Assembly (NCBI GenBank): GCA_003576695.1
Contig: QOZQ01000005.1
Span: 124,001 to 188,000, forward strand
Reading direction: 5' to 3'
DNA from: Taklimakanibacter lacteus
Lineage (GTDB): Bacteria; Pseudomonadota; Alphaproteobacteria; Rhizobiales; Aestuariivirgaceae
DNA: 64,000 nucleotides
Position numbers and translations under genes: made by a program. The notes below the pieces were generated by a model. It worked only from the letters and a program-made list of their open reading frames with translations, was not told the DNA's origin and searched no databases. Positions 17,795 through 33,173 of the stretch are shown here, piece by piece (positions within the stretch are counted from its first letter, which is position 1; every line of letters starts with the position of its first letter).

Positions 17795-19024
17795 TCAGCG
17801 CCTGCCCTTGGCCAGCCGCAGGCTGGCCGGACTTCTCCGAAGCAGGAGCATGGCCACCATGCCGACCAGCGGACCCGGCACCAGCATCAGGAACGCCCAC
17901 TGCCAGGAGCCGATGGAGCCTGCAAACAAAGGAATGAGCCAGACCGCCAGGGCCGTCAAAGCGAAGCCGATGCCCAGCTGAGCCGACAGGGCGGTGCCGA
18001 CAAATCTCTGGTCCGCCAGCTCCGAAACCGCGGCCGAGAACTGCGCCGAGTCGCCGACGATCGATATGCCCCAAACAAGGATCACCAGGACAAACAGCCA
18101 GGGGGGGCCGTCAAACGTAAGGCCCACCAGCAGCGCGCACAGGCCCGACACCGCCATCATTCCGGCCGTCGTCAGGGTGCGGCCAACAAGATCAGACAGG
18201 ACGCCGCCAAGGATGCAGCCCAGCGCGCCAACGGCAATGGCCGCGAAAGTCACGAGGGAGGCGATCGTGGGAGACGGAAGCGCCTGGGCCGCGAAGCCAT
18301 TCTTCACATAGATAAGGAGCCAGGCCCACATGGCATAGAGTTCCCACATATGGCCGAAATACCCGAGATTGGCGAGCAGCAGATCACGGTTGCGGAAGAC
18401 GGGACCGATCTGGCGCGGGTCGAAAACGGCGCGGCCAAAGGGACAAGGCCCCTCCTGCGCGAACAAGGCAAAGAGGACGGCACCGGCGAGCGCCGAAAGT
18501 GACGAGGCCGCGACCACGACATGCCAGTCGATGGTATGCGCGAGGCCGCGGAACAGATGCGGCAAGGAGGAGCCCAGCGTCAGCGCGCCGATCACCACGC
18601 CGAGCGCCAATCCGCGATCGCGATCGAACCAGGTTGAAACCAGCTTGAGCGCCGGAGGATAGACGCCGGCCAGCGCAACACCCGTCATCACCCGCAGCGC
18701 AATGGCGCCGACAGGGCCGGGCTCGAGCAGCAGCAAGGCGTTGCTCAGCGCCGCGAGAGCCGCGCCGCTCGCCATCAACCAATTGAGCCGCGCAACGTCC
18801 GGGAGAATGACGAGACTTGCCGTCAGCGCGCCGCAGACGAAGCCGATCTGAACACCATTGGCAAGCCAGGAGACGGCATGGGGCGACAGCTGCCACTCGC
18901 GCTCCAGCTCCGGGATTACCGCAGCCGCCGAGAACCAGGTCGTCAGGGTGAGCACGATGGCAAGCGCGAGCAGCGCCAGGATGCGCCAGCGACGCGTGTC
19001 GAGCCGATGCTCCGCCTGCGGCAT
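17795..19024 (-). CDS. MFS transporter, 12 TM
   Basis: A 409-residue major facilitator with about 12 hydrophobic helices. Typical MFS landmarks are the FDRDRGLALGVVIGALTLGSSLP loop at the end of helix 4 and GGVLSDLVGRTLTT between helices 8 and 9. The closest feel is the CynX/NNP-like anion or small-molecule class, but I cannot name a substrate. It is the last gene of the 13-gene operon, three bases after the MaoC gene, so it probably exports or imports an intermediate of the pathway, possibly a carboxylic acid. Confidence 0.85.
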   Translation of the reverse strand: MPQAEHRLDTRRWRILALLALAIVLTLTTWFSAAAVIPELEREWQLSPHAVSWLANGVQIGFVCGALTASLVILPDVARLNWLMASGAALAALSNALLLLEPGPVGAIALRVMTGVALAGVYPPALKLVSTWFDRDRGLALGVVIGALTLGSSLPHLFRGLAHTIDWHVVVAASSLSALAGAVLFALFAQEGPCPFGRAVFDPRQIGPVFRNRDLLLANLGYFGHMWELYAMWAWLLIYVKNGFAAQALPSPTIASLVTFAAIAVGALGCILGGVLSDLVGRTLTTAGMMAVSGLCALLVGLTFDGPPWLFVLVILVWGISIVGDSAQFSAAVSELADQRFVGTALSAQLGIGFALTALAVWLIPLFAGSIGSWQWAFLMLVPGPLVGMVAMLLLRRSPASLRLAKGRR

Positions 19025-19027
19025 CGC

Positions 19028-19483
19028 TCACTTCTTCTTCAGGGGAACCGTATAGACGGTGGCCGTGCCCGAGAGGCAGATGTCGCCGGCCTCGTTGCGC
19101 ACGCTCGTTTCGATCTTGCAGATCGGCTTGTCGGGGCGCACATCCTTGATTTCCACCCGGCCGGTAATCAGCTCATCGATGCCCACCGCCTTCACGAATT
19201 TCCATTCGACCGACAGGAAGACCGTGCCGGGCCCCGGCAGATCTTCCGCCACCAGCGCATTGAGGATGCCGGAAGTCACGCCTCCCTGCACGATCAGCTT
19301 TCCGAAGACCGACTGTTCCGCTAGGTCCCTGTCATAGTGCAATGGGTTATAGTCGCCGGTGATTTCCGAGAAGGCCACGATGTCCTTCATGGTGGTGCGC
19401 CGCGACCGCTCGGCGAAAGCACCCACGGCCGGGCGACCCTTGAGGACCCCTGCCCAGCCATCTGCCGTCTTTGCTTCGCTCAT
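19028..19483 (-). CDS. MaoC-like hot-dog hydratase
   Basis: A 151-residue single hot-dog domain. The hydratase-2 catalytic motif is present as D44 and H49 in SEITGDYNPLHYD, followed by the VFGKLIVQGGVTSGIL helix. Family members hydrate trans-2-enoyl-CoA to (R)-3-hydroxyacyl-CoA. A very good AGGAGG precedes the ATG. The gene follows the DUF35/thiolase-like pair by 13 bases, the same trio that forms hydratase-aldolase systems in steroid side-chain degradation (established for ChsH1/ChsH2/Ltp2). This suggests hydration of a branched or unusual enoyl-CoA. Confidence 0.85.
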   Translation of the reverse strand: MSEAKTADGWAGVLKGRPAVGAFAERSRRTTMKDIVAFSEITGDYNPLHYDRDLAEQSVFGKLIVQGGVTSGILNALVAEDLPGPGTVFLSVEWKFVKAVGIDELITGRVEIKDVRPDKPICKIETSVRNEAGDICLSGTATVYTVPLKKK

Positions 19484-19496
19484 CGCTTTCCTCCTG

Positions 19497-19916
19497 TCAG
19501 TCAGTTGTTTTGCGGAATGCCGGCAGCGTCCGCCCGCCGAATCGTGTTGGCGACAGTTCCAGGCAATCGCCTATGGCGATGTTTTCAGCCGCATGGATGA
19601 AGCTCAACATGGTCGGGCTCTCTTCAAGCTCGACGAGGCCGACGATGTAAGGCGCTGCCGGCTCCCAGGCCGGATGGCCGGGCTTGTGGATGCGCGAATA
19701 GGACTTGAGCGTGCCGCGGCCGCTCGCTTCCACCCAGCCCAGGCGGCTGCTCCAGCACCGCGGGCACAGCGCACGCGGGTAGAACACATATGACCGGCAG
19801 TCGCCGCATCGCTGGATGATGAGCTTGCCCAGCGCCGCCGCCTGCCAGAACGGCGCCGTCACCGCCGTGATGGTCGGACCCGGCAGAGCAAGACCGTCAA
19901 GGTCGATCGTCATCAT
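19497..19916 (-). CDS. DUF35 zinc-ribbon/OB-fold protein
   Basis: A 139-residue acyl-CoA-handling accessory protein. It has an N-terminal helix (TITAVTAPFWQAAALGKL), a rubredoxin-like zinc ribbon with C-x2-C and C-x2-C (QRCGDCRSYVFYPRALCPRCW), then an OB fold (SGRGTLKSYSRIHKP). DUF35 proteins bind thiolase-like partners or MaoC hydratases and help position the CoA substrate. The start ATGATG overlaps the thiolase-like stop in an ATGA, so the two are translated together and probably form a complex. Confidence 0.9.
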   Translation of the reverse strand: MMTIDLDGLALPGPTITAVTAPFWQAAALGKLIIQRCGDCRSYVFYPRALCPRCWSSRLGWVEASGRGTLKSYSRIHKPGHPAWEPAAPYIVGLVELEESPTMLSFIHAAENIAIGDCLELSPTRFGGRTLPAFRKTTD

Positions 19917-21070
19917 GCAGCTCCCAGCACGAGGGCGGTCGCCTCGCTCATGGTCGCGCCATTGCCGGTGGCGAGCGCATATCTTGGATTCCTGATCTGC
20001 CGCCCGTGGGCGCTGCCGCGCAGCTGACGCACCGCCTCGACGATGTGGGTCATCCCACCGGCGAGATCGGGCTGGCCGAAACCGAGCTGTCCGCCATGCG
20101 TGTTGACGGGCCTGTCTCCCGTGAAACCCAGATCGTGATCGCGCACCCACTGGCCAAACTGGCCCGGCGCGCAGAGACCGAGATCCTCGATCGTCGTCGC
20201 CACCATGATGGTGTAGCAGTCGTAGAGGGAAAGAAGGTCCATTTCCGCAGCCGGCAGTCCCGCCTGGTCGAGCGCACGCGCCATGGCGGGCTTGAGCGGC
20301 CCCGAGGTGAGCGACGGCGCCTGCGAGACGGCGCGATGCGTTACCTTCTCGCCGCCGCCCAGGACATATACCGGCTGTCCCCTCAGGCTCTTCGCACGGT
20401 CCGCCGATACAATCACGAGCGCATCGCCGCCCGCCACCGGCATCACGATCTCGAGGAGATGCAGGGGCGAGGCGATCATCGGCGAGGCGAGCACATCATC
20501 CAGCGTCGCGGGCCTGCCATGGAAGATCGCGTCCGGGTTGACCTGGGCATTGGCACGCGCCCATACCGCGATGCGCGCGAAATCCTCCGCCGTCGAGCCA
20601 TAAATGGCCATGTGAGCCTGCATCAGGAGCGCATAGGAGACATTGGCGCCCGATGCGCCGAAAGGCACATCGAACTCCCTTATGGGATTGCGATTGGTCG
20701 AGCGCGCCGGCACGTCCTCGCGCGTATTGGCGAGCACGCAGAGCACCGCCTCGCACATGCCAGCCGCTACGGCGGCGGCCGCCCGCCACACCATTCCGGC
20801 ACCCGAGGCGCCGCCCAGATCCACGACATTGGCCATCGTCGGCTTGAGGCCCAGATATTCGGCCACGGTCGCCGGCACATGCTGTGGCGTTTCGCCAACC
20901 TGCGGGCCGACCAGGAGGCCGTCGATGGCGCCGGGCTCCAGGCCCGCATCCATCACGGCGAGGCGCGACACTTCGGCGATCATGTCGAGCGTCGTTCGCC
21001 CGGATGTCCGGCGTTGCGGCTTCAATTCACCGATGCCGGCAATGGCTGCCTTGCGGCGCAGCGACCTCAC
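19913..21070 (-). CDS. SCP-x/Ltp2-like thiolase-fold protein lacking the catalytic cysteines
   Basis: A 385-residue thiolase-superfamily protein, GTG start overlapping the upstream AACS stop. The N-terminal AAIAGIGELK and C-terminal NTHGGQLGFGQPDLAG motifs are those of the SCP-x/lipid-transfer branch. Where thiolases have the nucleophilic Cys this protein has S89 (VVDLGGASGAGM), and the C-terminal Cys of the CxGGGxG motif is replaced (ATGNGATMS). It keeps the YDCYT motif. Such cysteine-less members paired with DUF35 are known to act as retro-aldolases on 3-hydroxyacyl-CoA (Ltp2 in sterol catabolism). I infer aldolase chemistry, not acyl transfer. Confidence 0.83.
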   Translation of the reverse strand: MRSLRRKAAIAGIGELKPQRRTSGRTTLDMIAEVSRLAVMDAGLEPGAIDGLLVGPQVGETPQHVPATVAEYLGLKPTMANVVDLGGASGAGMVWRAAAAVAAGMCEAVLCVLANTREDVPARSTNRNPIREFDVPFGASGANVSYALLMQAHMAIYGSTAEDFARIAVWARANAQVNPDAIFHGRPATLDDVLASPMIASPLHLLEIVMPVAGGDALVIVSADRAKSLRGQPVYVLGGGEKVTHRAVSQAPSLTSGPLKPAMARALDQAGLPAAEMDLLSLYDCYTIMVATTIEDLGLCAPGQFGQWVRDHDLGFTGDRPVNTHGGQLGFGQPDLAGGMTHIVEAVRQLRGSAHGRQIRNPRYALATGNGATMSEATALVLGAA

Positions 21071-23022
21071 AGCGCCTGCCCCGGATCGAGATTGCGATAC
21101 TCATCGAGACAGTGCGCATTGGCGAGCGACCCCAGGTTCTTGACGATGCCGCCCTGCAGGACCGTGCGCGCGGCACCTTCCACCCGCTTGCCGTTCAACG
21201 TGTAGGGAATCTCGCGCACCACATGTATCCGGTGCGGAACATGACGGGGCGAAGCCTGATCGCGGATGCGGCCACGAATGGCGCTCGCCAGCTCGGGCGT
21301 CAGTATCAGGCCGTTCTTGAGCTTGAGGCACAGCACCACTTCCTCATCTCCGGCCACTGGCGTCCCGAACACCAGACAATCCTCAATGCCCGGCACGGTC
21401 TCGCAGGCGGCATAGATTTCCGCCGTGCCGATGCGAACGCCGCCGGGCTTGAGCGTCGTGTCGGAGCGCCCGTAGATGACGGCTGAGCCATGTATCGTCA
21501 TCTCCGCCACATCACCATGGGTCCAGATCTCCGGGCGGGCGGCAAAATAGGTGGCGTGATAGCGCTCGCGGCCGCTCTTGCCCCAGAATGTAACCGGCAT
21601 CGACGGAAAGGGCTCGGTGCAGACGAGATCGCCCTGCAGACCGATCACGGGCGCATTGCGCTCGTCGAGGACATTGACCGCAAGACCCAGCCCCTTCACG
21701 GTCAAGGCGCCGCGCCTGACGCAATGAAGCGGTGAGCCCAGCATGAAGCAACCGATGATCTCCGTGCCTCCCGATATGGAAGCGAAGATCATGTCCTTCT
21801 TGATGTTGTCATAGACCCAATCGAACTGAACGGGCGACACCGGCGCTCCCGCCGACAGGACGCTGCGCAGGGCAGAAAGATCGTGCTGGTCCTTCGGCCG
21901 ATAGTCATCATCGGCAAGCGTCGCCAGATATTTGGGGCTGGTGCCGAAATGGGTGATGCCTGCTCTCTCGGCGAGCCTCCACAGCGGCGCCACATCCCGG
22001 CCCGTCGACGTCTTGAGCACAGGAGCCCCATCATAGAGGACGACGGCCGCCCCGCAGGCCAACCCCGAGATCAGCCAGTGATACATCATCCAGGCGGTGT
22101 TGGTGTACCAGGAGAGAACATCGCCCGGCCGCACATCGCCGTGCAGCATGTGCTCCTTCACGTGCTGCAGAAGCACGCCACCTGTCGAGTGGACGATCGC
22201 CTTGGGTGCGCCCGTGGTGCCCGACGTGTAGAGCACGTAGAGCGGATGCGAGAAAGCGACACGCTCGAAGACAAGCGGCAATTCCTCGCCAAGATCGCCC
22301 ATGGCGACGCATTCGATTGCAGGAGCGAGCGCCAGCCGGGCTGTTTCACCGCACTGAACCACAAGGCGGAGCTTCGCCATGCCGGCGGCGACTGCACTTA
22401 TCCGATCGGCGATATCGTGTTCCTTGCCGCCATAGCGATAGCGCGGCGAGACGAAGAGGGCCCTGGGCTCGATCTGGCCGAGCCGATCGAGGATGGCCGG
22501 TACACCGAAATCAGGCGAGCAGGACGACCAGATCGCGCCGATCGCGGCCGTCGCCAGGAGCGCCACCAGAGCATCGATCCGGTTGGCGAGGATACCGCCC
22601 ACCGCATCGCCCTTGCCTATGCCCGCCGCGCGCAGGCCGTTCGCCGCACGTGCTGTTCGGGCTTTCAGATCACGGAGTGAGATTTCGACATAGCCACCCG
22701 TCTCATCCGCCGCGATGACGGCAACCCTCCGGTCGGGGCCTTTGAGGAGGTTTTCCGCGAGATTGAGGCTGGCCTCCGGAAAGAAGGCAGCTCCGGTCAT
22801 GGGTGCCGCGACATCGGGAACGAACCACCGGTCGCCGGCTTCACCGAGGATGCCGGCAAAATCCCACAGGGCCTTCCAGAACGGCCCCTTCTCGCTGACC
22901 GACCAGCGATGCAGCGTATCATAGTCGTCCGCCGCAAAGCCGTTCTGCATGGCGAACCGGGCCATTGCGCTCGTCTCGAAAGCGTCCGGCCAGGGTCTCC
23001 ATAAAATGTCCCGTTTCATCAT
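21067..23022 (-). CDS. Acetoacetyl-CoA synthetase (acetoacetate-CoA ligase)
   Basis: A 651-residue ANL-superfamily ligase. ATP plus CoA activate acetoacetate or a related 3-oxo acid. The N-terminal ACAS-type domain (FAMQNGFAADDYDTLHRWSV) and PEASLNLAENLL are typical of acetoacetyl-CoA synthetases. The AMP-binding P-loop is YTSGTTGAPKAIVHSTGG, the adenylate region holds SGGTEIIGCF, and the C-terminal catalytic lysine lies in YTLNGKRVEG. Two adjacent ATGs follow a GAGG; the second has the better spacing. It lies inside the operon, downstream of an SDR by 27 bases and overlapping the thiolase-like gene. Confidence 0.9.
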   Translation of the reverse strand: MMKRDILWRPWPDAFETSAMARFAMQNGFAADDYDTLHRWSVSEKGPFWKALWDFAGILGEAGDRWFVPDVAAPMTGAAFFPEASLNLAENLLKGPDRRVAVIAADETGGYVEISLRDLKARTARAANGLRAAGIGKGDAVGGILANRIDALVALLATAAIGAIWSSCSPDFGVPAILDRLGQIEPRALFVSPRYRYGGKEHDIADRISAVAAGMAKLRLVVQCGETARLALAPAIECVAMGDLGEELPLVFERVAFSHPLYVLYTSGTTGAPKAIVHSTGGVLLQHVKEHMLHGDVRPGDVLSWYTNTAWMMYHWLISGLACGAAVVLYDGAPVLKTSTGRDVAPLWRLAERAGITHFGTSPKYLATLADDDYRPKDQHDLSALRSVLSAGAPVSPVQFDWVYDNIKKDMIFASISGGTEIIGCFMLGSPLHCVRRGALTVKGLGLAVNVLDERNAPVIGLQGDLVCTEPFPSMPVTFWGKSGRERYHATYFAARPEIWTHGDVAEMTIHGSAVIYGRSDTTLKPGGVRIGTAEIYAACETVPGIEDCLVFGTPVAGDEEVVLCLKLKNGLILTPELASAIRGRIRDQASPRHVPHRIHVVREIPYTLNGKRVEGAARTVLQGGIVKNLGSLANAHCLDEYRNLDPGQAL

Positions 23023-23049
23023 CGACCTCAGGCCCGACCGGTCTGGCGC

Positions 23050-23808
<759 letters not shown>

Positions 23809-23818
23809 TGCCTTCTCC

Positions 23819-24766
23819 TCACGTCCGCTTGACGGCCAGGCTGCTCATCGCCGCCATGGTCTCATCGAAAGACACGAGCTTGCCGACCGAGCCCAGTCCC
23901 ATCGCGACTTTCGCGGCGACCGCATTGGCAAACCGCGCCGCGAAGTTCAGATCCCAGCCCTTGATGATCCCGGTGATGATGCCGGCGGTAAAGCTGTCGC
24001 CGCATCCGGTCGTATCCGACACCCGGATGTCGAAGGCCGGGACATGGAAGTCCTCACCGTTCTCCGGTGAAACGAATACGCCGTCCGCCGCCAAAGTGAT
24101 GACGCAGTTCCTTACGCCCTGGCTCTTGAAGAAGCGCGCGACGGCATCCGGCTCGTCAACTCCCGCCATTTCACGGGCCTCGTCGATGCTGGGCACGAAG
24201 TAGTCGATATAGGGAAGACAGGGTGTCACGAGAGCGATCGTCTCGGGGTTGGCCTGGATGAGATCAAAGGTCGTGATGCGGTCACGCGCCTTCGCCTCCT
24301 TAAGAAGACGAACCGTCGGCTCGCCGTCAAAGGCCTTGAGGAGACCGGTGCCGCCCATATGAACGACCCGGGCGTCGAGGGCGGCATCCAGATCGGCCGG
24401 AGCGAGCGTGAAGGCCGCAGCTGTGCCCGGTACGTGCAGCGCCGGGCGCTCGCCATTCGGGCGCACGGGCAGGATGGTCGAAGAGGTCGGGATGCCTTCG
24501 GCGCGGCGAACCAGCGCGCAGTCGACGCCGAATTTCTCCATCTTGGCAACCATGAAGTCGCCCATGTCGTCCTCGCCGACCGTGGTGACGGCGCGGGTTC
24601 TCAGGCCCAGTATCGCGCAATCGACAGCGGTCCCGCCGGCGGTGCCGGCGACGGTCATGGTGATTTCCTCGATGAAGTCGGCGCGCCCGCCCGGCGGAAT
24701 GCGGCTCACCGGGCGACCGAGGATATCAAGCACGTAAAAGCCGATCGAACTCACATCGAAGGTCAT
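23819..24766 (-). CDS. PfkB-family carbohydrate kinase
   Basis: A 315-residue ribokinase-fold kinase. It has the N-terminal GG switch (GTAGGTAVDCAILGLR), an ATP-site signature DTTGCGDSFTAGI with catalytic base D257, and the family length. Cys replaces the usual Ala in GAGD. The second of two ATGs is chosen because it sits 6 bases after a GGAG. Family members phosphorylate sugars or nucleosides, and the context (next to an ABC sugar importer and with a class II aldolase in the operon) suggests phosphorylation of the imported compound before aldol cleavage. Confidence 0.88.
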   Translation of the reverse strand: MTFDVSSIGFYVLDILGRPVSRIPPGGRADFIEEITMTVAGTAGGTAVDCAILGLRTRAVTTVGEDDMGDFMVAKMEKFGVDCALVRRAEGIPTSSTILPVRPNGERPALHVPGTAAAFTLAPADLDAALDARVVHMGGTGLLKAFDGEPTVRLLKEAKARDRITTFDLIQANPETIALVTPCLPYIDYFVPSIDEAREMAGVDEPDAVARFFKSQGVRNCVITLAADGVFVSPENGEDFHVPAFDIRVSDTTGCGDSFTAGIITGIIKGWDLNFAARFANAVAAKVAMGLGSVGKLVSFDETMAAMSSLAVKRT

Positions 24767-24784
24767 CGTCATCTCCGCAGATGG

Positions 24785-25774: not shown

Positions 25775-26775
25775 CACGCCTCCTGGCCGCGGGCAAAGGA
25801 TGTCGCGGCCACGACAAGAAGAATGAGGGCGCCCTGTACGCCATTGACCCAGTAACTCGACACATTGAGCAGCTGGAAGCCGTTGGACAGAAAGCCGATG
25901 AACAGGACGCTGAGCAGCGTTCCGCCGACCGTCGGCACGAAACGCCGGGAGAACACGGTGCCGAGAAGGGCGGCGGCGAGGATCGACAGCAGCATCTCGT
26001 TGGAACCCGGCGTGCTGGCACTGAGGCGCGAGACGGTGAGCACGCTGGCAATCGCCGCACAAAGACCGGCAAAGACATAAGTGAGCGACACATAGCGCCG
26101 CACGCCCAGGCCCGCGGCACGCGCGGCTTCGGGATGCCCGCCGACGGCGTATAGCCGCAAGCCGACGCCCGTATAGTGGATCGCGACCGCCATGAGTCCC
26201 GAGAACAGGATCAGGAACCAGGCCAGGACAGAGACATCAAGGAAACGGCCGGTCATGAGGAATGCCAGGAGCGGCGAAGATGCCGGTACCACCGTGTTTT
26301 CGGTGAGCGTCAGCTCCGCGCCGCCGGCGATGTTCATGACGGCGAGAGTCGCCAGAAGTGGCAGGATGCCGAGCCCCACGACCGCCAGGGCGTTGACGGC
26401 TCCGACAACAGCACCAACCAGCAGCACCGCGGCGACCGAAACCAGATCGGAATATCCCGCCTGCAGCAGGCTCGCATAGGCGGCGGCGCACAGGCCCATA
26501 TTCGCCGCCATCGAAAGATCGATGCCGCCTTCGGTTATGTTCGAGCCGCCGCCAATGATGACGATCGCCATGCCGAAAGCCAGCACGCCCAGAATTGCGG
26601 ATTGCTCGACGACATTGAAGATGTTGAAGGGTGAGGTGAAACCCGGTGCAAACAGGATGAAATAGACGATCACCGCGACAAAGGCCCCAAAAGCGCCAGC
26701 GCGCACGGCAAAGGTCGCGATTCCCCGGCCGGCGAGGCCCTTTGGCCCGGACGCGGAAGCCGATGCCATCGTCAT
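25774..26775 (-). CDS. ABC sugar transporter permease (RbsC-like), second subunit
   Basis: A 333-residue inner-membrane permease of the same family as its neighbour but clearly divergent in sequence, so the transporter probably uses a heterodimeric membrane core. The family signature appears as GSNITEGGIDLSMAANMGLC, and the coupling region as AAGLGVRRYVSLTYVFAGLCAAIAS. About ten hydrophobic segments are visible. The start codon overlaps the end of the ATPase gene by 4 bases. Confidence 0.92.
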   Translation of the reverse strand: MTMASASASGPKGLAGRGIATFAVRAGAFGAFVAVIVYFILFAPGFTSPFNIFNVVEQSAILGVLAFGMAIVIIGGGSNITEGGIDLSMAANMGLCAAAYASLLQAGYSDLVSVAAVLLVGAVVGAVNALAVVGLGILPLLATLAVMNIAGGAELTLTENTVVPASSPLLAFLMTGRFLDVSVLAWFLILFSGLMAVAIHYTGVGLRLYAVGGHPEAARAAGLGVRRYVSLTYVFAGLCAAIASVLTVSRLSASTPGSNEMLLSILAAALLGTVFSRRFVPTVGGTLLSVLFIGFLSNGFQLLNVSSYWVNGVQGALILLVVAATSFARGQEA

Positions 26776-28286
26776 GCGGCCTCCATTTCGGATGGCCGGG
26801 ACGCGCCGGAGGATGCGGCGAGCAGGAGATCGCTGTCGAGCCTGGCTCCCGAGAACTCACCGGTGAGCGCGCCGCGATAGACCACGAGCACCCGGTCGCA
26901 CATGCCAGTGAGCTCCAGGAGATCGGAGGAGAGCATCAATATGGCTGCGCCCCGTTCAGCCAGACGGTTCAGCAGACCATAGATCTCGACCTTGGCCGCT
27001 ATATCCACCGCGACCGTCGGCTCATCGAGCACATAAATACGCGACTGGCAGCTCAACCACTTGGCAATCGACACTTTCTGCTGGTTGCCACCCGACAGCT
27101 GGCGCACCAGGACGTCCTTGCCGGGCGTCTTGATCGTCAACTCCCGGATGAGCGCGTCCACTTGCCGCCCCTCTTCCGCCCTCTTGATGAGGCCCTTGCT
27201 GCTGTAGCGGCCAAGGCTTGCGAGGCTGACATTCTCGCGGACCGAGAGGTCGAGCGCGATGCCGTGGGCACGCCGGTCTTCCGGCAGAAGCGCCAGCCCG
27301 GCGGCCACCGCATCATAGGGACCGGATGGGTGTACGGACCTGCCCTCGACGGCGATCGTCCCCTTGTCGGCGGTCTGAAGGCCGAACAGGCAGTTGACGA
27401 TCTCCTTGGCGCCCGACCCCAGAAGCCCGGTGATGCCGACAATCTCACCCTGGCGGATGGTGAAGCTGATATCCTCGAACCGGCCGGCAAGACCCAACTG
27501 CGAGACATCGAGGACCGGCGCGCCGATCGCAGCCTTGCGCTTGGGGAACATGGCGCCAACATCGCGCGCGATCATCATCGCAATGATCTTGTCGATGGAG
27601 GTCTCGGCGGGGCGGACAGTTCCGACATCGGCACCGTTGCGCATCACGGTCACGACGTCGCACAGCTGGTCGATCTCCTGCATGTAGTGCGAGATAAAGA
27701 TGATCGCGATGCCGTCGGCCTTCAGGCGGCGCAGAACGGCGAACAGACTGTCAACCTCGGTTTTGACCAGCGATGCCGTGGGCTCATCGAGCACCAGCAC
27801 CGCTGTCTTCTGCGCCAATGCCCGGGTGATCTGCACGATTTTCTGCTGGGCCGTCGTCAGGTCCTTGATCAGCGCCCCGGCCGGAAGTTCGATGCCGAAA
27901 TATCTTTTCAGGAGTTCATTGGCCGCTGCCGCCATGCGTCGGCGGCTGATGAAGGCCCCGAAACCGATCTCATGGCGTAGAAAGACAGCCTCACCTACCG
28001 TGGCGGTGGGAACCAGAAGCCGATCCTGGTGAATGAAATGTATCCCCAGCCTTTCAACCGACGCCGGCGTCAACCGGCCGACCGGACGACCGCCGATCTC
28101 GATCGATCCCGCATCCGGCGCAATGATGCCGGCCAGCACCTTGATGATCGTAGACTTGCCGGCGCCATTCTGACCGACAAGTCCATGAATGGTTCCGGGC
28201 ATGACTTCGAGACTGGCGTCCACCAGCGCCTTGACAGGGCCGAATGCCTTGCAAATGCCCTTCATGCGCAAAGACGGTGTCGTCAT
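26772..28286 (-). CDS. ABC sugar transporter ATP-binding protein (RbsA-like, two NBDs)
   Basis: A 504-residue fused double ATPase. NBD1 has Walker A GQNGAGKST, a signature variant LTTAQQKIVQITRAL and Walker B VLVLDEPTASL. NBD2 has a degenerate Walker A (GLLGSGAKE) but a canonical LSGGNQQKVSIAKWL and VLDEPTVAVD. This asymmetry is normal for carbohydrate-uptake-2 importers. The start was set at MTTPSLRMKGICKAF because the reading frame upstream matches nothing in the family and runs into the binding-protein gene. The preceding intergenic region contains a stable hairpin. Confidence 0.93.
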   Translation of the reverse strand: MTTPSLRMKGICKAFGPVKALVDASLEVMPGTIHGLVGQNGAGKSTIIKVLAGIIAPDAGSIEIGGRPVGRLTPASVERLGIHFIHQDRLLVPTATVGEAVFLRHEIGFGAFISRRRMAAAANELLKRYFGIELPAGALIKDLTTAQQKIVQITRALAQKTAVLVLDEPTASLVKTEVDSLFAVLRRLKADGIAIIFISHYMQEIDQLCDVVTVMRNGADVGTVRPAETSIDKIIAMMIARDVGAMFPKRKAAIGAPVLDVSQLGLAGRFEDISFTIRQGEIVGITGLLGSGAKEIVNCLFGLQTADKGTIAVEGRSVHPSGPYDAVAAGLALLPEDRRAHGIALDLSVRENVSLASLGRYSSKGLIKRAEEGRQVDALIRELTIKTPGKDVLVRQLSGGNQQKVSIAKWLSCQSRIYVLDEPTVAVDIAAKVEIYGLLNRLAERGAAILMLSSDLLELTGMCDRVLVVYRGALTGEFSGARLDSDLLLAASSGASRPSEMEAA

Positions 28287-28309
28287 GGGCTGGCTTTCTG
28301 AAACATGAG

Positions 28310-28346
28310 GGCAGGACCGCCGCCAATGCCCGGCAGCGGTCCCGCC
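28310..28346 (-). repeat. Intercistronic hairpin after the binding-protein gene
   Basis: The arms GGCAGGACCGC (28310-28320) and GCGGTCCCGCC (28336-28346) pair fully in the minus-strand RNA, with a single G-U. The loop is 15 bases. No T run follows, so the likely role is 3'-end stabilisation or partial termination between the highly expressed binding protein and the ATPase. Confidence 0.6.
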
Positions 28347-28354
28347 AGCTAGAG

Positions 28355-29365
28355 CTATTTTACGCCCGCCGCTTCGGCGGCATCCAGGAAGGGCTTGCCC
28401 TTTTCGGCGGCGTTCTCCTTGTTGATGAGAACGGCCGGAACCATCGTGAAGGGCGGCACCACCTGGCCAGCCAGGTGCTTGGCGACATTCTGAACGGCCG
28501 TCCTGCCGATCTCGTAGGGCTGCTGGGCGGCTACGGCGGCGGCCGTCGATTTCGGGTCCATGACCATCTTGATCACTTCCGGACTGCCGTCGATGCCGTA
28601 AGTCCTCACCTCCGTGCGACCAGCCGCCTCGGCCGCCTGCGATGCGCCGATCTGCGGCACATCCCAGCAGGCCCATACCGCCTTGACCGAGTCCTTTTCC
28701 GGCATCTTGGTGAGCATGTCGGTGACGTCCGAATAAGCCTTCTGGACCGTGTTCGGAATCACATCGCGCAATTCCGGCTCGATGATCTTGACCTCCGGAA
28801 ACGAGGTTAGGACATATTTGAGCTGATCGTAGCGGATCTTGCAGACAGGCACGCTGTAGAAGCCGTTGAACACGAGCACATTGCCCTTGCCGCCCATGTC
28901 TGCGACCATCTGCAGGGCGATCTCGGCACCGATATTATAGTTGTTCGATGTCGTGTTGTTCAAAGCATGCGGCGTGACCGTGTCGACCGTGAACAGCGGA
29001 ATGCCGGCTTCCTTGATCTTCTGCAGCCAGGGATTGAGAACCTCGATATTGCCGAGCACCTCGACCACGGCATCGGGCTTCTGCGCCAGAAGCGTCTGGA
29101 GGTGGGCAATCTGCTGCTGGTCTTTGCGGCCGGCGTCCAGCGCAATGGCTTCGCCGCCCAGCTTCTGGATTTCCTCAGTGATGCCCTTGAAGGCCATCAG
29201 ATCCCAATAGTGATCCGTACCGACAATCGACACACCGATCTTCTTGCCCTTGAGCGAGAGCTCATCCGCCCGGGCATCACCTGTCGTGTAGGCGGCGCAC
29301 AACAAGGCACATGCGGCAACTGCCATTTTCAGCATGTTTCCGCTTCGCCCAAACAACTCCTCCAT
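28355..29365 (-). CDS. Periplasmic sugar-binding protein of the ABC importer
   Basis: A 336-residue type I periplasmic binding protein (RbsB-like). It has an N-terminal signal peptide (MLKMAVAACALLCAAYTTGDARA) and a mature domain opening with GKKIGVSIVGTDHYWDLMAFKGI, followed by QKPDAVVEVLGNIEVLNPWLQKIKEAGIPLFTVDT. These segments match the pentose/hexose/autoinducer-2 group. GGAGGA lies 8 bases before the ATG, which fixes the start; a longer reading frame upstream has no signal peptide. The ligand cannot be predicted. It is flanked by two intercistronic hairpins. Confidence 0.9.
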   Translation of the reverse strand: MEELFGRSGNMLKMAVAACALLCAAYTTGDARADELSLKGKKIGVSIVGTDHYWDLMAFKGITEEIQKLGGEAIALDAGRKDQQQIAHLQTLLAQKPDAVVEVLGNIEVLNPWLQKIKEAGIPLFTVDTVTPHALNNTTSNNYNIGAEIALQMVADMGGKGNVLVFNGFYSVPVCKIRYDQLKYVLTSFPEVKIIEPELRDVIPNTVQKAYSDVTDMLTKMPEKDSVKAVWACWDVPQIGASQAAEAAGRTEVRTYGIDGSPEVIKMVMDPKSTAAAVAAQQPYEIGRTAVQNVAKHLAGQVVPPFTMVPAVLINKENAAEKGKPFLDAAEAAGVK

Positions 29366-29412
29366 CGGATCTTCCTCCCATTTTGCAGTTTCATATCCCC
29401 CTTCGGGGCGGC

Positions 29413-29437
29413 TTGCCGCGCTCTTTTCGCGCGGCAA
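29413..29437 (-). repeat. Intercistronic hairpin before the binding-protein gene
   Basis: Perfect 9-base arms TTGCCGCGC and GCGCGGCAA with a 7-base loop TCTTTTC, located between the aldolase stop and the binding-protein start. There is no T tract on the minus strand. It may be an RNA processing or stability element. Confidence 0.6.
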
Positions 29438-29450
29438 TTCGATGCGCGGA

Positions 29451-30134
29451 TCATGCCGCGGCAGTTGTCTCCTTGCGACCATAGCCAGCCGCAGCAATGC
29501 GGTTGATGACATTCTGGATTTCGTCTTCCGCCAGAAGCGGCACCTTTCCGAGCTGAAGACAGCCATGATACTGGCGCGCCAGCGTCTCGACCTCGACGGC
29601 AAGCCACATGGCCTTGTCCAGCGTCCTGCCGCAGGCAATGAGCCCATGGTGCTGGAGAAGACAGGCAAGCCGCCCTTCCAGCGCCTTGACCGCATTGGCG
29701 GACAGCTCGGCGGTGCCGAAGGTTGCGTAGGGCGCGCAGCGGATGGTGCTGCCGCCCGCGACCACGATCATATAGTGAAGGGGCGGAATGTCGTGACCCA
29801 TGATTGCGATCGTCGTGCAGTAAAGCGGATGAGCATGCACAACGGCATTCACATCCGGGCGCGCCTTCTGGATGTCGAGATGGAAGCGCCATTCGCTCGA
29901 CGGTCCGAGCGGTCCCTCCCAACTTCCGTCCCAGCGCATGAAGACGATGTCTTCCGGCTTCAGCGACTTGTAGGGAACGCTGGTCGGCGTCAGCAGAATG
30001 CCCTCACCATGGCGCACACTGATATTGCCGGATGTGCCCTGGTTGATCCCCACCGCATTCATCTCGATGCAGGCGTCTATGATCGATTGTCTCTTCTGAC
30101 GTTCGTCTTTGTCCATCAGTTTCAGCTTCTCCAT
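29451..30134 (-). CDS. Class II aldolase/adducin family protein (FucA-like)
   Basis: A 227-residue zinc-dependent aldolase fold. It has the N-terminal substrate loop NQGTSGNISVR, a catalytic-type glutamate E81 (PSSEWRFH), zinc ligands H100 and H102 (VVHAHPLY) and H162 (LQHHGLIACG), and a trailing AEDEI segment. The set matches L-fuculose-1-phosphate and related aldolases that release DHAP or a C2/C3 aldehyde. It lies 7 bases downstream of the operon's first SDR and in the same operon as a PfkB kinase, so the likely substrate is a phosphorylated ketose or a sugar acid. Confidence 0.87.
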   Translation of the reverse strand: MEKLKLMDKDERQKRQSIIDACIEMNAVGINQGTSGNISVRHGEGILLTPTSVPYKSLKPEDIVFMRWDGSWEGPLGPSSEWRFHLDIQKARPDVNAVVHAHPLYCTTIAIMGHDIPPLHYMIVVAGGSTIRCAPYATFGTAELSANAVKALEGRLACLLQHHGLIACGRTLDKAMWLAVEVETLARQYHGCLQLGKVPLLAEDEIQNVINRIAAAGYGRKETTAAA

Positions 30135-30141
30135 GTCGGGA

Positions 30142-30918
30142 TCACCACGCGGTATATCCGCCGTCGATCGATAGGATGGATCCGGTGATGTATGATGACG
30201 CGGCCGATGCCAGGAACACGGCGGCAGCGGCGATTTCCGACGGCTCGCCGCAACGGCCCATCGGCGTCATGTCGAGCCACACATTGAACAGCTCGGGCCG
30301 CTCACGCATCTTGAGCGTCATGTCGGTGCCGACATAGCCGGGCGCCAACGCGTTCACGCGCACGCCGGACTTGGCCCATTCGGCGGCGAGCGCCTTGGTC
30401 AGTTGATGGACGGCACCCTTGCTTGCCATGTAGGACGGGGCCGTCTGTGGGCGGTTGACGATGATGCCCGACATCGATCCGAGATTGACGATGCTGCCCT
30501 TGCCGCGCGCAATCATGTGACGACCAAAGGCCCGACAGCACCAGAATGTGCCGTTCACATTCACATCCATGACGAGGCGCCATTCGTCGTCTGGCGTTTC
30601 GAGACCGCCGTTCAGGCGGGCGATACCGGCGCTGTTGACGAGGACGTCGGCGGCGCCGAACTGCTCGAACAACCGGTCTGCCATCGCCGTCACCGCCGCG
30701 GACTGGGTGACGTCCAGCCGTTCGGCCGCACCTACGGCGATGCCTGCGGCGCGCAGGGCGCTTGCAGCCCTGGCGAGACTCTCTTCGTTCTGATCGAGAA
30801 GAATGATGGTCGAACCGCAGGCGGCCAAGGCGCGCGCCGTCTCAAGCCCAATGCCGCTTGCACCGCCGGTCACAACCGAAACGGTATCCGTCATATCGAG
30901 CAGGTCGCGATAGCCCAC
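30142..30918 (-). CDS. SDR-family oxidoreductase, first gene of the 13-gene operon
   Basis: A 258-residue classical short-chain dehydrogenase. Rossmann motif TGGASGIGLE, D42 for NAD(H), NSAG in place of NNAG at 95-98, and catalytic S148, Y163, K167 (YMASK). The GTG start is 6 bases after GGAGG. It resembles sugar or polyol dehydrogenases of the family, but specificity cannot be read from sequence. Being promoter-proximal and next to the aldolase suggests that it oxidises the imported substrate or an aldolase product. Confidence 0.88.
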   Translation of the reverse strand: MGYRDLLDMTDTVSVVTGGASGIGLETARALAACGSTIILLDQNEESLARAASALRAAGIAVGAAERLDVTQSAAVTAMADRLFEQFGAADVLVNSAGIARLNGGLETPDDEWRLVMDVNVNGTFWCCRAFGRHMIARGKGSIVNLGSMSGIIVNRPQTAPSYMASKGAVHQLTKALAAEWAKSGVRVNALAPGYVGTDMTLKMRERPELFNVWLDMTPMGRCGEPSEIAAAAVFLASAASSYITGSILSIDGGYTAW

Positions 30919-31002
30919 GCAGTCCTCCCATGTCCTGTTACGGCAGAGGCTGCCTTGCGCGGAACAGGTGATTGCCTACCGTCTCTTGCGGCGTTGGCGC
31001 TA

Positions 31003-31047
31003 CGAATATCTGATCATAACCATATTGTCAATCTGGTTATGATCAGA
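31003..31047 (-). promoter_or_regulatory. Operon promoter with palindromic operator around its -35 box
   Basis: The arms TCTGATCATAACCA (31009-31022) and TGGTTATGATCAGA (31034-31047) form a perfect 14-base inverted repeat with an 11-base spacer. On the minus strand the spacer contains TTGACA (31031-31026), and 17 bases later comes TATTCG (31008-31003), giving a plausible promoter about 85 bases upstream of the first SDR. Repressor binding would block the -35 box. The distal arm overlaps the stop codon of the GntR regulator gene, whose product is the obvious candidate ligand. Confidence 0.75.
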
Positions 31048-31927
31048 AAGATGTCTTGAGCAATTGGCCGGCGGGAGAATGCCCTACCGCCATGTGAATG
31101 CGGGCCAGCGATGAATTGTACACTGCCTCATAGTATTCGAGCGGCATTCCCTCAGTATCATAGGCGAGCGACTCGATAGCGATGAGCGGCGTGTGCGCCG
31201 ATATGCCCATGCGATCAACCTGCTCCGGCGTCGGAAGAGCCGCCGTCAACCAGCGGTCGGCACGCGACAGGGTAATGCCATAAATCTCCCGGAGCGTTTG
31301 AAAGACGGACATGTTTTCGCCAAGGCGGGTTTCGAGCCCCGGCACCCGGTGGCCGGGAAGCGAAATGTGGGTCATGGTGATCGGAACATTGTCGGACATG
31401 TAGACCCGCCCGATGCGCACGACATCGCCTTCCGGCGGGAGCCCGAATATGCGGCGCTCCTTCTCCGATGGTTTCGCACGTACGAATTCGAAAGTCCTGG
31501 TCGAGACCTTGTGGCCCTTGGCGGTCAGATCTCCGAACACGCCGAGATTGGTGGCCATGAAGTCGACATGCTCGCGCGGCGGAGCGACGAACATGCCCTT
31601 TCTCGGCATCTTGATGATCCGGCCATCCACCGACAGGGCACCCAGAGCGGCGCGCACAACAGGCTTGGAGACACCGAATATCTCGCAGAAGGCCTGCTCG
31701 GAAGGTATCCGCGAATTCGCCGCAAGAACCCCCTTGTTCATCGCGTCCTCTATTCGATTGCGCAGTTGCACCCATAGCGGGGCCACGTCCTCGCGCTCGA
31801 GAGTGGTCTTGGCGCCGAGTTTCCGGAAGGCGGCCGCGGCTTTGGCATCCTCCGCATCATATCGGGGCCTTCCGCGCCCTCGCGATTTGGCTTTTGTCAC
31901 GGCACTCCTTCCCACAGGCTTCTCCAT
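31043..31927 (-). CDS. GntR-family transcriptional regulator with UTRA domain (HutC-like)
   Basis: A 294-residue regulator. It has a ~45-residue basic N-terminal extension (AKSRGRGRPRYDAEDAK), a winged helix (LWVQLRNRIEDAMNKG, then IPSEQAFCEIFGVSKPVVRAALGALSVDGRI), and a C-terminal UTRA effector domain (VSTRTFEFVRAKPSEKERRIFG to GMPLEYYEAVYNS). UTRA domains bind small metabolites such as sugar phosphates or acids. The ATG at 31927 is one codon inside a possible TTG start; no ribosome site is evident. It stands between the operon it probably represses and a divergent thiolase gene. Confidence 0.9.
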   Translation of the reverse strand: MEKPVGRSAVTKAKSRGRGRPRYDAEDAKAAAAFRKLGAKTTLEREDVAPLWVQLRNRIEDAMNKGVLAANSRIPSEQAFCEIFGVSKPVVRAALGALSVDGRIIKMPRKGMFVAPPREHVDFMATNLGVFGDLTAKGHKVSTRTFEFVRAKPSEKERRIFGLPPEGDVVRIGRVYMSDNVPITMTHISLPGHRVPGLETRLGENMSVFQTLREIYGITLSRADRWLTAALPTPEQVDRMGISAHTPLIAIESLAYDTEGMPLEYYEAVYNSSLARIHMAVGHSPAGQLLKTSF

Positions 31928-31936
31928 CAACAGATT

Positions 31937-31950
31937 ATTGGTTATAAGTA
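31937..31950 (+). promoter_or_regulatory. Half-operator-like element in the gntR/thiolase intergenic region
   Basis: ATTGGTTATAAGTA shares TGGTTAT with each arm of the operon operator. It covers a TATAAG that could serve as the -10 box of the thiolase gene, and it lies just upstream of the gntR ATG, so one site could control both directions. Confidence 0.45.
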
Positions 31951-31997
31951 GAAATGCAAGGGCGCCCTGTCGGAACAGCGCGCGTGAAGTGGCGAAG

Positions 31998-33173
31998 ATG
32001 ACCGACGTCTATATTGTTGCAGCCAAACGATCTCCGATCGGAAAATTGAACGGCTCCCTCTCCGGCCTCCCGGCAGCGATGATCGGCAGCCAGGTGATTG
32101 CAGGCATGCTCGATGACGCGGCCCTCGATCCCGGCGCCGTGTCGGAAGTCATCCTCGGGCAGGTCCTGACGGGTGGAGCCGGACAGAACCCTGCCCGTCA
32201 GGCCGCACTTCGTGCCGGACTGCCGGTCACCACGCCGGCCCTGACCGTGAATCAGGTCTGCGGCGCAGGTCAAAGGTCCATACATCTCGCCGCGCAAGCC
32301 ATCCAGTGCGGTGACGCGGAAATCATCGTGGCCGGCGGCCAGGACAGCATGACCGAGGCTCCTCACCTCGTTTATGGCGTCCGCCGGGGTTGTCGCATGG
32401 GAGAGCAGACGGTGCGGGACTCCATGCTTGTCGATGGCCTGACCGATGCCTTCCACGACGTGCATATGGGGGCGACGGTGGAGCGCCTCGTCCAACGCTA
32501 TCAGATCACCCGCGACTCCCAGGACCGCTTTGCCTTGCATTCCCAGCAAAAAGCCCAAGCAGCGCAAGGAGCCGCAATCTTCGATGCGGAGATAGTCCCG
32601 ATCACAGTGAAGCTGCGCTCCGGAGAAGCCATCATCGCCCGTGACGAGCATCCGCAGGCAGATGCATCGCTCGAACGCCTTAGCCGTCTCAAACCGGCTT
32701 TCGCATCTGACGGCACCATTACGGCAGGCAACTCGTCCGGCCTCAATGACGGCGCCGCCGCGGTGCTTGTCGTGGCGGAGGGAGCGCTGCAGCGACACGG
32801 CCTCACGCCGCTCGCGCGCATCGCGGCCTACGCATCGGGCGCGGTCGAGCCCATGGACATGGGGCTTGGTCCGGTCGCCGCCAGTCGCAGAGTCCTCGCA
32901 AAAGCCGGATGGAGAGCGGATGATCTTGATCTGCTCGAGATCAACGAAGCCTTTGCGGCCCAGGCGATCATCGTCAACCGCGAGATGGGGTGGGACAGCG
33001 CGCGCATCAATGTGAATGGCGGCGCCATCGCGCTTGGTCATCCCCTGGCCGGCTCAGGATGCCGTATCGTCGTCACGCTGATACACGAGATGGTCAGGCG
33101 GAACGTCAGGAAGGGGCTCGCTTCACTCTGCATCGGCGGGGGACAAGGGGTTGCCATCTGTCTCGAGCGATAG
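31998..33173 (+). CDS. phaA: Acetyl-CoA acetyltransferase (thiolase)
   Basis: A 391-residue canonical biosynthetic-type thiolase, which interconverts two acetyl-CoA with acetoacetyl-CoA. The catalytic residues are C88 (NQVCGAGQRS), H348 (GGAIALGHPLAGSG) and C378 (LCIGGGQG). The pantetheine-loop QDSMTEAPHL and the NEAFAAQ motif are also intact. The ATG was placed before TDVYIVAAKRSPIG, the normal N terminus. Although encoded divergently from the regulator, it would complete acetoacetate use started by the acetoacetyl-CoA synthetase of the operon. It contrasts with the cysteine-less thiolase-like protein at the operon's far end. Confidence 0.94.
   Translation: MTDVYIVAAKRSPIGKLNGSLSGLPAAMIGSQVIAGMLDDAALDPGAVSEVILGQVLTGGAGQNPARQAALRAGLPVTTPALTVNQVCGAGQRSIHLAAQAIQCGDAEIIVAGGQDSMTEAPHLVYGVRRGCRMGEQTVRDSMLVDGLTDAFHDVHMGATVERLVQRYQITRDSQDRFALHSQQKAQAAQGAAIFDAEIVPITVKLRSGEAIIARDEHPQADASLERLSRLKPAFASDGTITAGNSSGLNDGAAAVLVVAEGALQRHGLTPLARIAAYASGAVEPMDMGLGPVAASRRVLAKAGWRADDLDLLEINEAFAAQAIIVNREMGWDSARINVNGGAIALGHPLAGSGCRIVVTLIHEMVRRNVRKGLASLCIGGGQGVAICLER

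What the first reader, a model, noticed from the sequence alone, without database searches (positions are those of the whole stretch)
17795..33173. Thirteen-gene operon joins sugar import and aldol cleavage to CoA hydratase/aldolase and ketone-body activation
Seen: from an SDR at 30.9 kb down to an MFS at 17.8 kb, 13 same-strand genes are separated by at most 85 bases and often overlap (GTGA, ATGA, TGATG). The set mixes modules usually found apart: ABC sugar importer, PfkB kinase, class II aldolase and two SDRs with acetoacetyl-CoA synthetase, a cysteine-less thiolase-like protein, DUF35, MaoC and MFS. A true thiolase and a GntR/UTRA regulator flank it. Inference: an imported compound is phosphorylated and cleaved, and a C4 or branched acyl part is activated, hydrated or cleaved and delivered as acetyl-CoA. 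I know of no described pathway with this exact gene set. The substrate is not predictable and could be a branched sugar, a sugar ester of a 3-hydroxy acid or a modified polyol.
Basis: partly seen in the sequence, partly recalled or inferred. Interest (0 to 1): 0.78.

Follow-up and report, generated by a model that had tools for sequence, protein, structure and literature searches.

The report
Co-regulated polyol-to-acetyl-CoA catabolic operon
A bacterial operon joins the import and splitting of an unknown sugar alcohol to a second set of enzymes that break down a small acid, and because relatives keep the two sets together and often put the same DNA control site in front of both, it is probably one undescribed degradation pathway.

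Summary
Thirteen minus-strand genes (30918-17795) run with gaps of -4 to 85 bases, flanked by a GntR/UTRA gene and a true thiolase.

The union of the two halves is not chance. Of the 80 closest thiolase-like (ThlL) loci kept, 43 also carry the aldolase. Both halves also occur apart: the CoA half beside acid symporters in bacilli, the sugar half in a genome without ThlL. They appear to have been joined more than once.

The new result is a shared operator, TGGTTATAACCA. In Mesorhizobium-type loci it lies both before SDR1 (sugar half) and in the thiolase/AACS promoter (CoA half). Fifteen whole genomes hold 17 perfect copies, 16 in this locus. The window has three degenerate copies, all beside GntR. 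In 8 of 8 loci with a TetR gene in the CoA promoter, the operator is missing there.

Two labels change. The 'thiolase-like' protein resembles Ltp2-type retro-aldolases, and the 'acetoacetyl-CoA synthetase' is a paralog with changed pocket residues. The importer keeps 9 of 10 listed pocket residues of an allitol-bound relative.

Most likely one pathway turns a polyol into DHAP plus acetyl-CoA. Substrate and order of steps are inferred, not shown.

The parts
31998..33173 (+). ThlT: true thiolase (acetyl-CoA acetyltransferase type); Cys88, His348, Cys378 kept
   Evidence: Pfam/NCBIfam; residues kept in 71 of 71 aligned rows
31939..31950 (.). operator-like site TGGTTATAAGTA (2 mismatches) in the GntR/ThlT gap
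31043..31930 (-). GntR/UTRA regulator, likely cluster repressor (start may be internal, e.g. 31903)
   Evidence: regulator gene nearest to the operator sites
31010..31046 (.). perfect 13-base inverted repeat made of two degenerate operator sites (31011 TGATCATAACCA, 31034 TGGTTATGATCA); the second overlaps the end of GntR
30142..30918 (-). SDR1: short-chain dehydrogenase, proposed polyol to ketose
   Evidence: Tyr and Lys of the YxxxK motif kept in 42 of 42 rows
29451..30134 (-). FucA-like class II aldolase
   Evidence: Glu81, His100, His102, Tyr136 kept in 46 of 46 rows, His163 in 46 of 46
28355..29365 (-). CUT2-type periplasmic binding protein, allitol-type pocket
26772..28286 (-). sugar ABC transporter ATPase
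25774..26775 (-). ABC permease 1
24785..25777 (-). ABC permease 2 (start GTG 25777 or ATG 25774/25771)
23819..24772 (-). PfkB-family kinase, proposed ketose 1-kinase
23050..23808 (-). SDR2: second short-chain dehydrogenase
21067..23022 (-). AACS-type acyl-CoA ligase, paralog with changed pocket residues
19913..21070 (-). ThlL: thiolase-fold retro-aldolase candidate (Ltp2 type)
19497..19916 (-). DUF35/ChsH2-type OB-fold partner with zinc ribbon (start ATG 19916 or 19913)
   Evidence: four Cys kept in 84, 82, 84 and 84 of 84 rows
19028..19483 (-). MaoC enoyl-CoA hydratase, Asp44/His49 kept
   Evidence: 65 of 65 rows
17795..19024 (-). MFS transporter, probably for the acid
   Evidence: found in 57 of 80 ThlL loci

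Best explanation
This is one catabolic unit for a polyol (or the matching aldose) whose carbon ends as DHAP and acetyl-CoA. The ABC importer with an allitol-type pocket takes it in. SDR1 makes the ketose, PfkB the ketose 1-phosphate, and the FucA-like aldolase splits this into DHAP and an aldehyde. The aldehyde is oxidised to an acid, by an aldehyde dehydrogenase that in several relatives lies just after SDR2 and must come from elsewhere in this genome. The AACS-type ligase makes the CoA ester, MaoC hydrates it where needed, and ThlL with DUF35 cleaves the beta-hydroxyacyl-CoA by retro-aldol, giving acetyl-CoA (or propionyl-CoA) and a small carbonyl compound. ThlT finishes by thiolysis. GntR/UTRA represses both halves through TGGTTATAACCA-type operators until an intermediate induces. 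Shown by computation: genes, families, active-site residues, recurrent linkage, shared operator. Inferred: every reaction, their order, the repressor's identity and the substrate.
For: Linkage: 43 of 80 loci carry FucA beside ThlL, with AACS in 77, DUF35 in 80, MaoC in 62, ThlT in 68. The 'sugar-linked' label needs 12 changes on the ThlL tree, at least 6 forced by supported branches, 28 in shuffles. Paraburkholderia L051 and L055 have a close copy of the sugar half (SBP 73-75%, FucA 67-68%) with a CoA half of another lineage (ThlT 41%; ThlL grouped with the bacilli), so the union was probably made more than once. Operator: 66 sites with at most 1 mismatch in 39 of 80 loci against 2.0 expected, none inside a mapped gene, at both promoters in 27 loci, mostly Mesorhizobium kin; 16 of 17 perfect sites in 15 genomes lie in this locus, 4 for the reversed control pattern; present with at most 2 mismatches in 32 of 36 divergent ThlT/AACS promoters without a TetR gene and in 0 of 8 with one. 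Aldolase: ThlL matches Ltp2 (6ok1, E 4.1e-48) and has Gly and Gln where thiolases have Cys and His. Importer: 9 of 10 listed pocket residues of 4WT7. Series logic: aldehyde dehydrogenase follows SDR2 in L145, L151, L085, L086, and after a flavin monooxygenase in L149 and L084; 18 of 18 Bacillota loci have AACS, ThlL and DUF35 with an SSS (8) or MHS (10) symporter and no FucA.
Against: No aldehyde dehydrogenase is in this operon; the nearest in the genome is 39% identical to Shinella's. Of the six downstream stretches that show SDR2 in the cluster, Mesorhizobium L146 and L148 have none after it and L144 only a 33% match on the other strand. The sugar half occurs (FucA to aldehyde dehydrogenase) in a genome with no ThlL match at E <= 1e-120 (L088/G278), so it can work alone. 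37 of 80 ThlL loci show no FucA in the fetched stretch (L047 among them has PfkB and SDR2). The CoA half has its own TetR gene in 8 loci. Within the window's own genus 0 of 4 other genomes, and in the family 1 of 68 others (39% identity), have ThlL at E <= 1e-60: the cluster is patchy. In the window's genome 41 sites reach 2 mismatches against 47 for the control pattern, so the window's degenerate sites count only by position. Four divergent promoters without TetR (L037, L046, L074, L083) lack the operator. The Rhodococcus cluster (L087) uses a ligase only 29% like this one, nearest to acetate-CoA ligase models. If the acid were simply acetoacetate, ThlL would have no job.
Confidence: 0.5

Rival explanations
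1. Parallel use of one conjugate: the natural substrate is an ester, ether or sulfate of a polyol with a short acid. After hydrolysis the sugar half burns the polyol (DHAP plus glyceraldehyde or glycolaldehyde) and the CoA half burns the acid. The two are co-regulated because they are released together.
For: Each half occurs alone. Three roseobacter-type loci (L049, L060, L067) put a sulfatase and a sulfonate-type ABC importer beside the halves, and L049 also an esterase and an operator copy. The MFS could import the free acid.
Against: No hydrolase is among the 13 genes of the window's operon; the L049 esterase has no counterpart at E <= 1e-10 in the other loci or the window. The sulfatase was found in only 3 of 80 loci.
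Confidence: 0.25
2. Two different nutrients from the same habitat: a pentitol/hexitol (such as allitol, ribitol or psicose) and an unrelated short acid, joined only by shared timing.
For: Both halves exist alone and the CoA half has its own TetR gene in some lineages.
Against: Repeated joining and the same operator on both promoters, almost nowhere else in the genomes searched.
Confidence: 0.17
3. Chance neighbours or a recent fusion without joint function.
For: The window's fused order (SDR2 directly followed by AACS) was not seen in the loci mapped, and the cluster is patchy within the genus.
Against: The joined state is also found in Mesorhizobium, Rhizobium, Shinella, Hoeflea, Sulfitobacter, Aureimonas, Paraburkholderia and Marinomonas loci, with a shared operator in many.
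Confidence: 0.03

Closest known systems
Ltp2-ChsH2(DUF35) and Sal/Shy steroid side-chain hydratase-aldolase complexes
   Same: MaoC hydratase + DUF35 + cysteine-less thiolase-fold aldolase; in Sal's pathway the free aldehyde is thought to be oxidised and re-esterified, as proposed here (PMC11321319, passages seen)
   Different: None of the 13 genes here is a recognisable steroid gene; ligase of AACS type; linked to a polyol/DHAP-aldolase half; DUF35 and MaoC are separate proteins
Klebsiella michiganensis deoxyribonate pathway with acyl-CoA intermediates
   Same: A sugar acid is proposed to be made a CoA ester and cleaved to acetyl-CoA (PMC6365646, passages seen)
   Different: That cluster has a beta-hydroxyacyl-CoA dehydrogenase, CoA-transferase and glycerate kinase; the passages seen name no retro-aldolase, PfkB or FucA
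Fuculose/ribulose 1-phosphate type pathways (kinase plus FucA giving DHAP and an aldehyde; recalled)
   Same: PfkB and FucA pair, DHAP product expected
   Different: SDR in place of an isomerase, CoA half attached
Agrobacterium vitis allitol-bound binding protein 4WT7
   Same: 392-bit match; 9 of 10 listed pocket residues identical
   Different: Phe63 is Trp in 41 of 42 aligned proteins; the gene neighbourhood of 4WT7 was not examined
Canonical acetoacetyl-CoA synthetase
   Same: Above the NCBIfam cut-offs
   Different: Tyr314, His/Pro315, Ala/Cys391, Glu421 in 80 of 80 cluster ligases, where the genome's second copy has Trp, Asn, Thr, Asp

Membership tests
Ltp2-type retro-aldolase (with DUF35) | thiolase fold with the catalytic Cys lost, sequence kin to Ltp2 | tested here: met
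   6ok1 E 4.1e-48; Gly at the Cys place and Gln at the His place (alignments), invariant in 84 of 84 rows
Ltp2-type retro-aldolase (with DUF35) | DUF35 partner with zinc ribbon and OB fold, and a MaoC hydratase | tested here: met
   Pfam zf-ChsH2, OB_ChsH2_C, MaoC; Cys kept in 82-84 of 84 rows, MaoC Asp/His in 65 of 65. MaoC was found in only 3 of 18 Bacillota loci
Ltp2-type retro-aldolase (with DUF35) | the two active-site tyrosines of Ltp2 (recalled; paper not held) | tested here: inconclusive
   Tyr283 of the YDCYT motif aligns with the YDHFT Tyr of 6ok1; the Tyr before IHGM in 6ok1 has no Tyr counterpart. Residue numbers could not be checked
Ltp2-type retro-aldolase (with DUF35) | retro-aldol cleavage of a beta-hydroxyacyl-CoA | not testable with these tools
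   needs enzyme assay
thiolase (ThlL) | Cys/His catalytic residues | tested here: not met
   ThlT by contrast keeps all three in 71 of 71 rows
canonical acetoacetyl-CoA synthetase | NCBIfam TIGR01217 cut-off | tested here: met
   699 bits against 520.9
canonical acetoacetyl-CoA synthetase | residues at the places that line the acyl pocket in acetyl-CoA synthetase (pocket places recalled), as in 4wd1 and the genome's second copy | tested here: not met
   four places differ in 80 of 80 cluster ligases
FucA-type DHAP aldolase | zinc-binding His residues, catalytic Glu and Tyr (roles recalled) | tested here: met
   Glu81, His100, His102, Tyr136 in 46 of 46 rows, His163 in 46 of 46; the neighbouring His162 is Gln in 19 and Tyr189 is Phe in 3; 232 bits to E. 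coli FucA structures
allitol-type CUT2 binding protein | the ten pocket residues of 4WT7 listed in PMC10318746 (chosen there around sorbitol modelled in allitol's place) | tested here: met
   9 of 10 identical; the tenth is Trp for Phe. The paper counts 18 residues within 4 A; the other 8 were not listed in the passages seen
K. michiganensis-type deoxyribonate pathway | 3-hydroxyacyl-CoA dehydrogenase, CoA-transferase and glycerate kinase in the cluster | tested here: not met
   no CoA-transferase or glycerate kinase model among the Pfam/NCBIfam hits shown for the genes; two generic SDRs remain possible dehydrogenases

The most novel reading that the evidence does not exclude
An undescribed central route in which a ribo-configured polyol carrying a short acyl-forming tail is first split by a DHAP aldolase and then by a steroid-type retro-aldolase acting on a small CoA ester. 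This would be the first use known to me of an Ltp2/DUF35/MaoC set on a sugar-derived compound, spread across Proteobacteria and Bacillota with interchangeable upstream modules (polyol ABC, sulfatase plus sulfonate-type ABC, GMC dehydrogenase, acid symporters).
Probability: 0.35. Interest if true: 0.8.

Novelty: new variant of a known kind. Interest (0 to 1): 0.62.

Why it matters
A compound met by soil and marine bacteria is probably degraded by a pathway with no description that I could find. The cluster gives a testable list of enzymes, a binding protein for ligand screening, and a 12-base operator that marks the regulon in whole genomes. It would also move the hydratase/DUF35/aldolase set, known from steroid side chains, into small-molecule carbon metabolism.

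Tried and rejected
Acetoacetate as the acid: rejected as the simple answer, because ThlL would be idle and the ligase's pocket residues differ. HMG or mevalonate, carnitine, gonyol, 2-C-methylerythritol, deoxyribonate, AI-2 and bacteriohopanetetrol were weighed on paper only; each explained some neighbour genes but none explained both halves. The literature searches gave no description of this gene set (mostly listings only). PMC9007349 was searched for five terms with no occurrence. One search listed PMC4694137 with one TGGTTATAACCA occurrence; by its listing it is about galactosamine regulators in streptococci, and I did not open it. The esterase of L049 was followed and found in no other locus. 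GcvT-type demethylase genes beside L044 and L061 may belong to separate operons. The single-mismatch operator elsewhere in the window's genome (G000:C22:353121) lies just after a helicase-like ORF and was set aside. The wish to see the aldehyde dehydrogenase in all Mesorhizobium failed; of the 8 stretches fetched, L147 showed no cluster gene and L150 only the CoA side. No structure prediction was run.
Full report
OBSERVATION. The ORF list and translations and the Pfam and NCBIfam scans confirm thirteen minus-strand genes from SDR1 (30918) to MFS (17795), with gaps between -4 and 85 bases. A GntR/UTRA gene lies upstream on the same strand and a true thiolase (ThlT, 31998-33173) is divergent. 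Promoter-like sites number 6 against 3.2 (sd 1.7) in shuffles, terminator-like sites 9 against 9.9, so the scan says little.

LINKAGE OF THE HALVES. A scan of genome contigs with the thiolase-like protein ThlL gave 376 relatives, of which the best 80 loci were kept; the weaker 296 were not examined. Counting homologs inside the fetched stretches: AACS in 77 of 80, DUF35 80, MaoC 62, ThlT 68, MFS 57, GntR 40, FucA 43, SBP 38, PfkB 25. PfkB and SDR2 are undercounted because many stretches end there. Annotated relatives (Sulfitobacter, Shinella, Rhizobium plasmids) show the whole set plus an aldehyde dehydrogenase. On a quick tree of 85 ThlL proteins (window, 80 loci, 4 plasmid loci) the label 'FucA or PfkB beside it' (48 rows) needs 12 changes, at least 6 of them forced by supported branches, against 28 in shuffles; many forks are weakly supported. 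Paraburkholderia L051 and L055 join a close copy of the sugar half to a CoA half whose ThlL groups with the bacilli. The cluster is patchy: ThlL at E <= 1e-60 is in 0 of 4 other genomes of the window's genus and in 1 of 68 others of the family.

THE HALVES ALONE. In a survey of 397 genomes of the order, ThlL was found in 4 (E <= 1e-120), FucA in 139 and PfkB in 53 (both E <= 1e-60). Of the 4 with ThlL, G000 and G130 have FucA and PfkB within about 11 kb, G247 has a FucA about 10 kb away, and G334 has FucA only on another contig. L088 holds FucA, SBP, the ABC genes, PfkB, SDR2, a flavin monooxygenase and an aldehyde dehydrogenase, and its genome has no ThlL match. L095 has aldehyde dehydrogenase, SDR2, PfkB and FucA beside a sulfatase and a sulfonate-type ABC importer; its genome carries the CoA half elsewhere (L094), there near a second FucA. 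The 18 Bacillota loci carry AACS, ThlL and DUF35 in 18, ThlT in 16, MaoC in 3, FucA in 0, with an MHS (10) or SSS (8) symporter. Vibrio and Rhodovulum types add a GMC dehydrogenase, genes that look like ETF subunits by eye, and an aldehyde dehydrogenase. So one core seems to receive an acid from several upstream modules.

SHARED OPERATOR. Upstream of SDR1 in Mesorhizobium types lies the palindrome TCTGGTTATAACCAGA, and TGGTTATAACCA recurs in the divergent ThlT/AACS promoter. Over the 80 loci, 66 sites with at most one mismatch were found in 39 loci, where resampled sequence gives 2.0; none lies inside a mapped gene, and 27 loci, mostly Mesorhizobium kin, have it at both promoters. In 15 whole genomes there are 17 perfect sites in 12 genomes; by coordinate 16 lie in this locus (the exception is in the Marinomonas genome), against 4 for the reversed pattern. 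Of 44 loci with ThlT and AACS mapped and divergent, 32 of 36 without a TetR gene between them carry the site with at most 2 mismatches (23 perfect), and 0 of 8 with a TetR gene do. In the window the only sites with at most 2 mismatches in 64 kb are at 31011, 31034 and 31939, where 0.4 are expected; the first two form a perfect 13-base inverted repeat. Against this, the whole genome of the window has 41 such sites and the control pattern 47, so only their placement is telling. In Ruegeria L049 a site with one mismatch lies between the sulfonate-type importer and the sulfatase. That GntR is the protein that binds is inferred from its place.

PROTEINS. ThlL's nearest solved relatives are 9myr, 4u4e and Ltp2 (6ok1). 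It has Gly and Gln where thiolases have Cys and His, in 84 of 84 rows, while ThlT keeps all three catalytic residues in 71 of 71. MaoC keeps its Asp/His dyad in 65 of 65; FucA keeps Glu81, His100, His102, Tyr136 and His163 in 46 of 46. Described Sal/Shy and Ltp2/ChsH2 systems pair a MaoC hydratase with a DUF35-bound aldolase, and in Sal's pathway a free aldehyde is thought to be oxidised and re-esterified (PMC11321319, passages). The ligase passes the AACS cut-offs, but 80 of 80 cluster ligases have Tyr314, His or Pro315, Ala or Cys391 and Glu421 where the genome's second copy (44% identical) has Trp, Asn, Thr and Asp and 4wd1, by eye, the same. That these places line the acyl pocket is recalled from acetyl-CoA synthetase. 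The importer's binding protein matches 3l49 (489 bits) and 4wt7 (392 bits). 4wt7 holds allitol; PMC10318746 (passages) lists ten pocket residues, chosen around sorbitol modelled in allitol's place. Nine are identical here and in 42 of 42 aligned proteins, and Phe63 is Trp in 41 of 42.

MECHANISM. The most economical reading is a series: polyol, ketose, ketose 1-phosphate, DHAP plus aldehyde, acid, CoA ester, retro-aldol, acetyl-CoA. It explains why an aldehyde dehydrogenase often sits after SDR2 (L145, L151, L085, L086; after a flavin monooxygenase in L149 and L084) and why the CoA half can be fed by importers of the acid. It does not explain the missing dehydrogenase in the window, L146 and L148, nor L144, which has only a 33% match on the other strand, and the substrate stays open. 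A parallel reading (conjugate split into two parts) is the main rival.

NOVELTY. No described pathway with this set appeared in the searches, all of one open-access library; subscription papers were not searched. The enzymes are known kinds; their union and shared control are what is new here.

Noticed in passing
window 28310-28346: A 17-pair GC-rich stem-loop between the binding-protein and ATPase genes, a usual place for a structure that sets a higher level of binding protein.
   Followed up: no
L049, L060, L067, L095: Sulfatase (CMPAR motif by eye in L049) and sulfonate-type ABC importer beside FucA/PfkB; in L049 an operator copy lies in their promoter.
   Followed up: partly
L071, L037, L094: L071 has an isomerase distantly resembling sulfoquinovose isomerase (95.7 bits, cut-off 700) and no SDR1 match in the fetched stretch; L071, L037 and L094 carry an OYE-type flavoenzyme.
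   Followed up: partly
L044, L061: GcvT-family demethylase beside the CoA half, with MTHFR genes in L044.
   Followed up: partly
L039, L042, L046 (Devosia): MaoC lies on the other strand with a MalEFG-type importer, a UPF0261 (Tm-1-like) protein, a PEP-hydrolase-like protein and a Gfo/Idh-like protein; L042 has a degenerate operator between MalE and MaoC.
   Followed up: no
G000:C4:47100-48962 (L101): Second acetoacetyl-CoA synthetase-type ligase in the window's genome, with the usual pocket residues.
   Followed up: partly
L087 (Rhodococcus opacus plasmid): ThlL/DUF35/MaoC/ThlT cluster whose ligase is nearest to acetate-CoA ligase models instead (472 bits, cut-off 657).
   Followed up: no
L091: SDR2-PfkB-FucA set without the CoA half in the fetched stretch, near a BisC-type S/N-oxide reductase.
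   Followed up: no
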